A stretch of 64,000 bases of DNA from the NCBI GenBank assembly GCA_028284905.1, contig JANQQU010000028.1, forward strand, positions 1 through 64,000. The letters run 5' to 3'. This DNA is from Calditrichia bacterium. GTDB lineage: Bacteria > Calditrichota > Calditrichia > RBG-13-44-9 > J075. Below, in pieces: positions 60,620 to 61,303 of the stretch. A program made the position numbers and the translations under genes. Position 1 is the stretch's first letter. Each line of letters begins with the position of its first letter. Under the pieces are notes generated by a model. It did no database searches and had not been told where the DNA came from. It saw only the letters and a list, made by a program, of their open reading frames with translations.

Positions 60620-61303
60620 ATGCGAAACGCTCTCACTGCAAATGCAAAAACTGGTAAAATTCCCGCATTAGATAAAAATATTCCCGGCAAACTGGAAACA
60701 GCAACCTTTGGCCTGGGATGATTCTGGGGACCCGACTCCCGGTTCGGGAGTTTTGATGGTGTCTACAGAACCCGTGTCGGTTACAGTGGTGGCCGGAAGA
60801 AAAATCCGACCTACTACGAACTTGATGATCACACCGAAACTTTTCAGGTAGACTTTGATCCGGCGGTGATATCCTATCGGGATTTGCTGGAGGTATTCTG
60901 GAAGAGCCACAAAGGCACTGATCGTGCCTGGTCTCGTCAATATATGCCGGTGCTTTTTTACGAGAATGCCGGGCAGCAGGAAATCGCTGAAGCAAGCAAG
61001 GCTGAATTGGAGGCCGATTACGGACGTCCGGTGGTAACGCCTTTATTGCCGCTGGAAAAATTTTATTTGGCGGAGGAATATCATCAAAAGTATCGTATGC
61101 AGAACTTAAGCGAGATCATGCAGGAATTTAAGATGATCTACCCGAAAGGGCTCGATTGGGTGCATTCGCCGGCTGCGACTAAAATAAATGGCTTTGCCGG
61201 CCGGAATGGTTCAGTAGATGGTTTCACTGCGATCTCCGAGCAATTGGGACTTTCCGATGCTTCGAAGCGAAGATTGCAGGAAATTCTTCAGCGAAGATGG
61301 TAA
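60620..61303 (+). CDS. msrA: Peptide methionine sulfoxide reductase MsrA, probable selenoprotein (in-frame TGA at 60719-60721 = catalytic residue)
   Basis: Continuous frame ...KLETATFGLG-[TGA]-FWGPDSRFGSFDGVYRTRVGYSGGRKKNPTYYELDDHTETFQVDFDP...; TGA replaces Cys of GCFWG; ATG 60620 preceded by ggaaagga. Supplied ORF fragments 60521-60721 and 60866-61303 are in the same frame. Confidence 0.88.
60735..60751 (+). promoter_or_regulatory. Putative bacterial SECIS hairpin in msrA
   Basis: ACTCCCG-GTT-CGGGAGT, 7-bp perfect stem with G-first apical loop, starting 13 nt after the TGA. Confidence 0.6.

What the first reader, a model, noticed from the sequence alone, without database searches (positions are those of the whole stretch)
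60620..61303. Selenocysteine MsrA: in-frame TGA exactly at the catalytic Cys, with SECIS-like hairpin
Seen in sequence: two ORF fragments (60521-60721 and 60866-61303) share one frame, and translation across TGA 60719-60721 gives LETATFGLG-U-FWGPDSRFGSFDGVYRTRVGYSGG, an intact MsrA. The only interruption is at the nucleophile of the family motif GCFWG. A perfect 7-bp hairpin (60735-60751, ACTCCCG GTT CGGGAGT) with a loop starting with G begins 13 nt after the TGA, as expected for SelB-dependent bacterial SECIS elements. Other genes in the window end with TGA (e.g. 2460), so global recoding of TGA is unlikely. Established knowledge: Sec-containing MsrA exists but is rare in bacteria. Inference: this organism decodes Sec, and standard annotation will miss or split this gene.
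Basis: partly seen in the sequence, partly recalled or inferred. Interest (0 to 1): 0.92.

Follow-up and report, generated by a model that had tools for sequence, protein, structure and literature searches.

The report
Selenocysteine methionine-sulfoxide reductase in Calditrichota
A bacterium of the phylum Calditrichota makes a protein-repair enzyme whose catalytic residue is selenocysteine, written as a 'stop' codon in the gene, so standard annotation loses it; this is a new member of an enzyme type already known from another bacterium.

Summary
TGA 60719-60721 lies in frame at the nucleophile of an otherwise intact MsrA (GUFWG; ATG 60620, 227 aa), and a perfect 7-bp hairpin follows 13 nt later. 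The genome encodes tRNA-Sec, SelA (split over two contigs), SelB and a SelD that itself carries an in-frame TGA, plus a further likely selenoprotein (thioredoxin fold, UPFC). A same-family genome with tRNA-Sec and SelB has a 46%-identical MsrA with TGA at the same codon. There the hairpin persists with one two-sided and one wobble-compatible stem change, and the hairpin region is 81% identical in DNA against about 50% elsewhere in the gene. Sequence and predicted fold both match best the Clostridium oremlandii 1-Cys selenoprotein MsrA (PDB 4LWJ), including its C-terminal helical domain and the absence of any Cys. This is a genuine Sec-MsrA of a known kind, not a pseudogene or global recoding. 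The organism is most likely Calditrichota. One difference: neither Calditrichota genome with Sec-MsrA has a detectable glutaredoxin, the reductant of the Clostridium enzyme. Close relatives appear in the databases only as the 145-aa C-terminal fragment. Interest modest.

The parts
60620..61303 (+). msrA, selenoprotein: 227 aa, one Sec (U34), no Cys
   Evidence: Translation with TGA=U; Pfam PF01625 E 5e-40; TIGR00401 above cut-off
60719..60721 (+). Sec codon TGA at the catalytic position of GCFWG
   Evidence: Sequence; same codon TGA in G003 homologue L020; TGT/TGC in Cys homologues
60734..60752 (+). bacterial SECIS hairpin: 8 bp (7 Watson-Crick at 60735-60751 plus a closing G-U), loop GUU 60742-60744, 20 nt between UGA and loop
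   Evidence: Folding; stem search and shuffles; conserved in G003 with one two-sided and one wobble change; meets the published bSECIS constraints
60604..60612 (+). probable ribosome binding site (GGAAAGGAA) upstream of ATG 60620
   Evidence: Read in the sequence; inference
61130..61300 (+). C-terminal helical domain matching residues 145-209 of the C. oremlandii enzyme (approximate boundaries)
   Evidence: phmmer alignment to 4lwj; predicted helices and Foldseek match over 201 columns; domain boundaries of the Clostridium enzyme from PMC4333827

Best explanation
A Sec-decoding Calditrichota bacterium expresses a 1-Cys-type MsrA in which UGA 60719-60721 is read as selenocysteine by SelB with Sec-tRNA-Sec, directed by the hairpin at 60734-60752. 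The selenolate of U34 attacks methionine-S-sulfoxide, releasing methionine and leaving a selenenic acid. With no resolving Cys in the protein, that intermediate must be resolved by an outside thiol. Shown here: gene, codon position, hairpin and its conservation, decoding machinery, fold family and active-site residues. Inferred: actual Sec insertion, enzyme activity and the identity of the reductant.
For: In-frame TGA exactly at the nucleophile of an intact PF01625 protein. tRNA-Sec 73 bits and ARAGORN tRNA-SeC; selB; selA over cut-off, its two halves joined by a contig-end overlap of at least 99 bp; selD with its own in-frame TGA followed by a hairpin. Same-family genome G003, with tRNA-Sec and SelB, has TGA at the same codon in a 46%-identical protein. 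After the TGA, 14 codons are 81% identical in DNA against 49-54% in the rest of the gene. A third Sec candidate in the genome, a redoxin with UPFC, is followed by a perfect 8-bp hairpin with loop GGC. Active-site residues Y47, E55, Q89, Y90, H137 and Y140 of the Clostridium enzyme are all kept. Predicted structure pLDDT 88.7; best PDB matches are the Clostridium enzyme, TM 0.89 on the target.
Against: No transcript, protein or read data. Hairpin energy alone is unremarkable (z -0.9 to -2.1). The relative's loop lacks the G of the bSECIS model. Only two genomes give TGA-bearing DNA, so covariation rests on one two-sided and one wobble change.
Confidence: 0.95

Rival explanations
1. Pseudogene: a point mutation turned a catalytic Cys codon (TGT or TGC) into TGA and the gene is no longer made.
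For: One base separates TGA from TGC/TGT; the genome has three other, Cys-type MsrAs that could make this one dispensable.
Against: No other lesion in 227 codons; TGA is conserved in G003 at 46% protein identity; 89% and 94% identical database entries are kept as the same 145-aa piece and are intact over that piece; Sec machinery is present; the hairpin region is more conserved than the rest of the gene.
Confidence: 0.03
2. Global recoding of TGA (for example as Trp or Gly) rather than Sec insertion.
For: TGA is read through in this gene.
Against: Ordinary genes in the window are closed by TGA and in-frame read-throughs are otherwise absent; the few internal TGAs found (MsrA, SelD, UPFC redoxin) sit at redox Cys positions; tRNA-Sec and SelB are present.
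Confidence: 0.005
3. Sequencing or assembly error at the codon.
For: The genome is a 93-contig assembly and reads cannot be seen.
Against: Independent genome G003 has the same codon, and the close homologues in other sources are also called from the downstream GTG only.
Confidence: 0.01

Closest known systems
Clostridium (Alkaliphilus) oremlandii selenoprotein MsrA (CoMsrA; PDB 4LWJ, 4LWK, 4LWL, 4LWM, 4U66, 4W8C)
   Same: Sec at GUFWG, no Cys at all (1-Cys type), same catalytic residues, same extra C-terminal helical domain; best match by sequence (E 7e-51) and by fold (TM 0.89).
   Different: About 41% identical; different phylum; CoMsrA is reduced by glutaredoxin and not by thioredoxin (PMC4479559), whereas no glutaredoxin was found in this genome or in G003.
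Cys-type members of the same 1-Cys MsrA clade (haloarchaea, Halanaerobium, Kosmotogales, cyanobacteria)
   Same: Same clade with full support (100/99); DHTE motif instead of GHxE; mostly no resolving Cys.
   Different: Cys (TGT/TGC) instead of Sec; of 45 tested, one has a comparable hairpin.
Other MsrAs of the same genome (C2, C13, C61)
   Same: PF01625 enzymes.
   Different: Cys-type with additional Cys, other main clade.

Membership tests
MsrA (PF01625 / TIGR00401) | Score above the curated cut-off of the family | tested here: met
   PF01625 137.6 bits against 23.7; TIGR00401 124.8 against 108.1
1-Cys selenoprotein MsrA, CoMsrA type | Sec codon at the catalytic position of G[U/C]FWG | tested here: met
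   TGA 60719-60721
1-Cys selenoprotein MsrA, CoMsrA type | No resolving Cys | tested here: met
   No Cys in the 227 aa; none after the TGA in G003 either
1-Cys selenoprotein MsrA, CoMsrA type | C-terminal helical domain and full set of active-site residues | tested here: met
   Alignment to 4lwj, residues, structure model and Foldseek
1-Cys selenoprotein MsrA, CoMsrA type | Regeneration by glutaredoxin | tested here: inconclusive
   No PF00462 match in G000 or G003, found in 32 of 41 genomes of the phylum and 13 of 14 controls; biochemistry not testable
Bacterial selenoprotein gene | Sec decoding machinery (selA, selB, selC, selD) in the genome | tested here: met
Bacterial selenoprotein gene | bSECIS: 3-9 nt loop, 4-16 bp stem, G in first two loop positions, 16-37 nt from UGA to loop, MFE at most -7.5 | tested here: met
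   Loop GUU, 7-8 bp, 20 nt, -14.5 to -19.7 kcal/mol against the model in PMC13188914; the G003 homologue lacks the loop G
Bacterial selenoprotein gene | Selenium in the protein | not testable with these tools
   Needs 75Se labelling or mass spectrometry

The most novel reading that the evidence does not exclude
In Calditrichota this Sec-MsrA works without glutaredoxin and is regenerated by another route, for instance thioredoxin, a low-molecular-weight thiol, or the genome's UPFC selenoprotein of the redoxin fold, giving a Sec-to-Sec repair chain different from the Clostridium one.
Probability: 0.35. Interest if true: 0.5.

Novelty: new member of a known kind. Interest (0 to 1): 0.36.

Why it matters
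It extends the experimentally characterised 1-Cys selenoprotein MsrA type to a phylum for which the held literature has no paper that mentions both selenocysteine and a word beginning with Calditrich. It shows that databases hold only a 145-aa fragment of its closest relatives, and it raises a concrete question: what reduces the enzyme where glutaredoxin is missing.

Tried and rejected
Viral contigs with a TGA at the motif: 4 chance matches, none MsrA. NF041383 (VPGUxxT thioredoxin-like) hit: only a weak local match to the MsrA region, no member over the cut-off in the phylum. Plasmids: the annotated relatives in the rows listed are ordinary MsrA genes, none close. Conserved gene neighbourhood: none between the window and G003, where the gene is followed by a threonyl-tRNA synthetase-like gene (naming by eye). 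Single origin of Sec within the clade: unresolved by the tree.

Full report
TGA 60719-60721 is the only interruption in a frame that reads, with TGA as U, MRNAL...LETATFGLG-U-FWGPDSRFGSFDGVYRTRVGYSGG...LQRRW, 227 aa from ATG 60620 to the stop ending at 61303. The product is an MsrA by Pfam and NCBIfam cut-offs. A perfect 7-bp hairpin, 60735-60751, begins 13 nt after the TGA. A hairpin of that quality in that place arises by chance in about 1.3% of shuffles or random windows, and in 1 of 45 Cys-type homologues, so on its own it is weak evidence.

The genome can decode Sec. tRNA-Sec scores 73 bits and ARAGORN calls it tRNA-SeC. SelB is complete (645 aa). SelA is over its cut-off but lies at a contig end; its N-terminal part is at the end of another contig with an overlap of at least 99 bp, so it is most likely intact across an assembly break. 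SelD carries an in-frame TGA near its N-terminus followed by a hairpin, an arrangement known for SelD (own knowledge: many SelD proteins are selenoproteins). A redoxin-fold protein has TGA in a UPFC motif, followed by a perfect 8-bp hairpin with loop GGC. So the genome has at least three likely Sec codons at redox positions.

Conservation. Among 41 genomes of the phylum, one other (G003, same family, different genus) has the gene with TGA at the same codon; it too has tRNA-Sec and SelB. The proteins share 46% identity. In the 14 codons after the TGA the DNA is 81% identical, against 54% upstream and 49% downstream, and 6 of 9 shared residues use the same codon, against 4 of 17 and 25 of 77. 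The stem is kept with one two-sided change (G-C to A-U) and one wobble-compatible change (U-A to U-G). The loop changes from GUU to AUU, so the G of the bSECIS model (PMC13188914) is present in the window's element and absent in the relative's. The two closest database proteins (94% and 89% identical) are the 145-aa piece that starts at the downstream GTG, which is how standard annotation would treat the window's gene too.

What it is. The closest solved structures are those of the Clostridium oremlandii MsrA, natively Sec-containing and without any Cys (PMC4333827, PMC4479559). An AlphaFold2 model (pLDDT 88.7) matches 4LWJ over 201 columns with TM 0.89 on the target, helical domain included. 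The active-site residues named for that enzyme fall on Y98, E106, Q140, Y141, H188 and Y191 of P0001 (alignment). A tree places the window's protein, G003 and CoMsrA in one fully supported clade with 1-Cys proteins of haloarchaea, Halanaerobium, Kosmotogales and cyanobacteria, apart from the genome's own Cys-type MsrAs. Within that clade the number of Cys/Sec changes is unresolved.

How it works. By analogy with CoMsrA, the selenolate attacks methionine-S-sulfoxide; without a resolving Cys the oxidised Sec is resolved by an outside thiol, in CoMsrA glutaredoxin (PMC4479559). Here no glutaredoxin was found in the genome (about 100% complete) nor in G003, although 32 of 41 genomes of the phylum and 13 of 14 controls have a match. 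Thioredoxins are present. The reductant is therefore open. Absence by one Pfam model is not proof; a divergent glutaredoxin could be missed.

Organism. The nearest named SelB proteins are from Calditrichaeota/Calditrichaceae, so the genome is most likely Calditrichota; this is inference. No held paper mentions both selenocysteine and a word beginning with Calditrich, and the reviews and the ocean survey list Sec-MsrA as a known bacterial selenoprotein family.

Noticed in passing
L165 1093-1095 (G000:C83:6892): Redoxin/AhpC-TSA-fold protein with in-frame TGA in the motif ASW-U-PFC, followed by a perfect 8-bp hairpin with loop GGC: very likely another selenoprotein of the same genome.
   Followed up: partly
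L049 (G000:C21:22816-23739): SelD with in-frame TGA (LVTCAG-U-ASKIGPGDL) and a short hairpin with loop CGGGU.
   Followed up: partly
L138 and L018 (G000:C46 and C28 contig ends): selA is cut by a contig boundary; the two contigs overlap by at least 99 bp, so selA next to selB is probably intact but split in the assembly.
   Followed up: yes
genomes G000 and G003: No PF00462 glutaredoxin in either Calditrichota genome that carries Sec-MsrA, while most of the phylum has one.
   Followed up: partly
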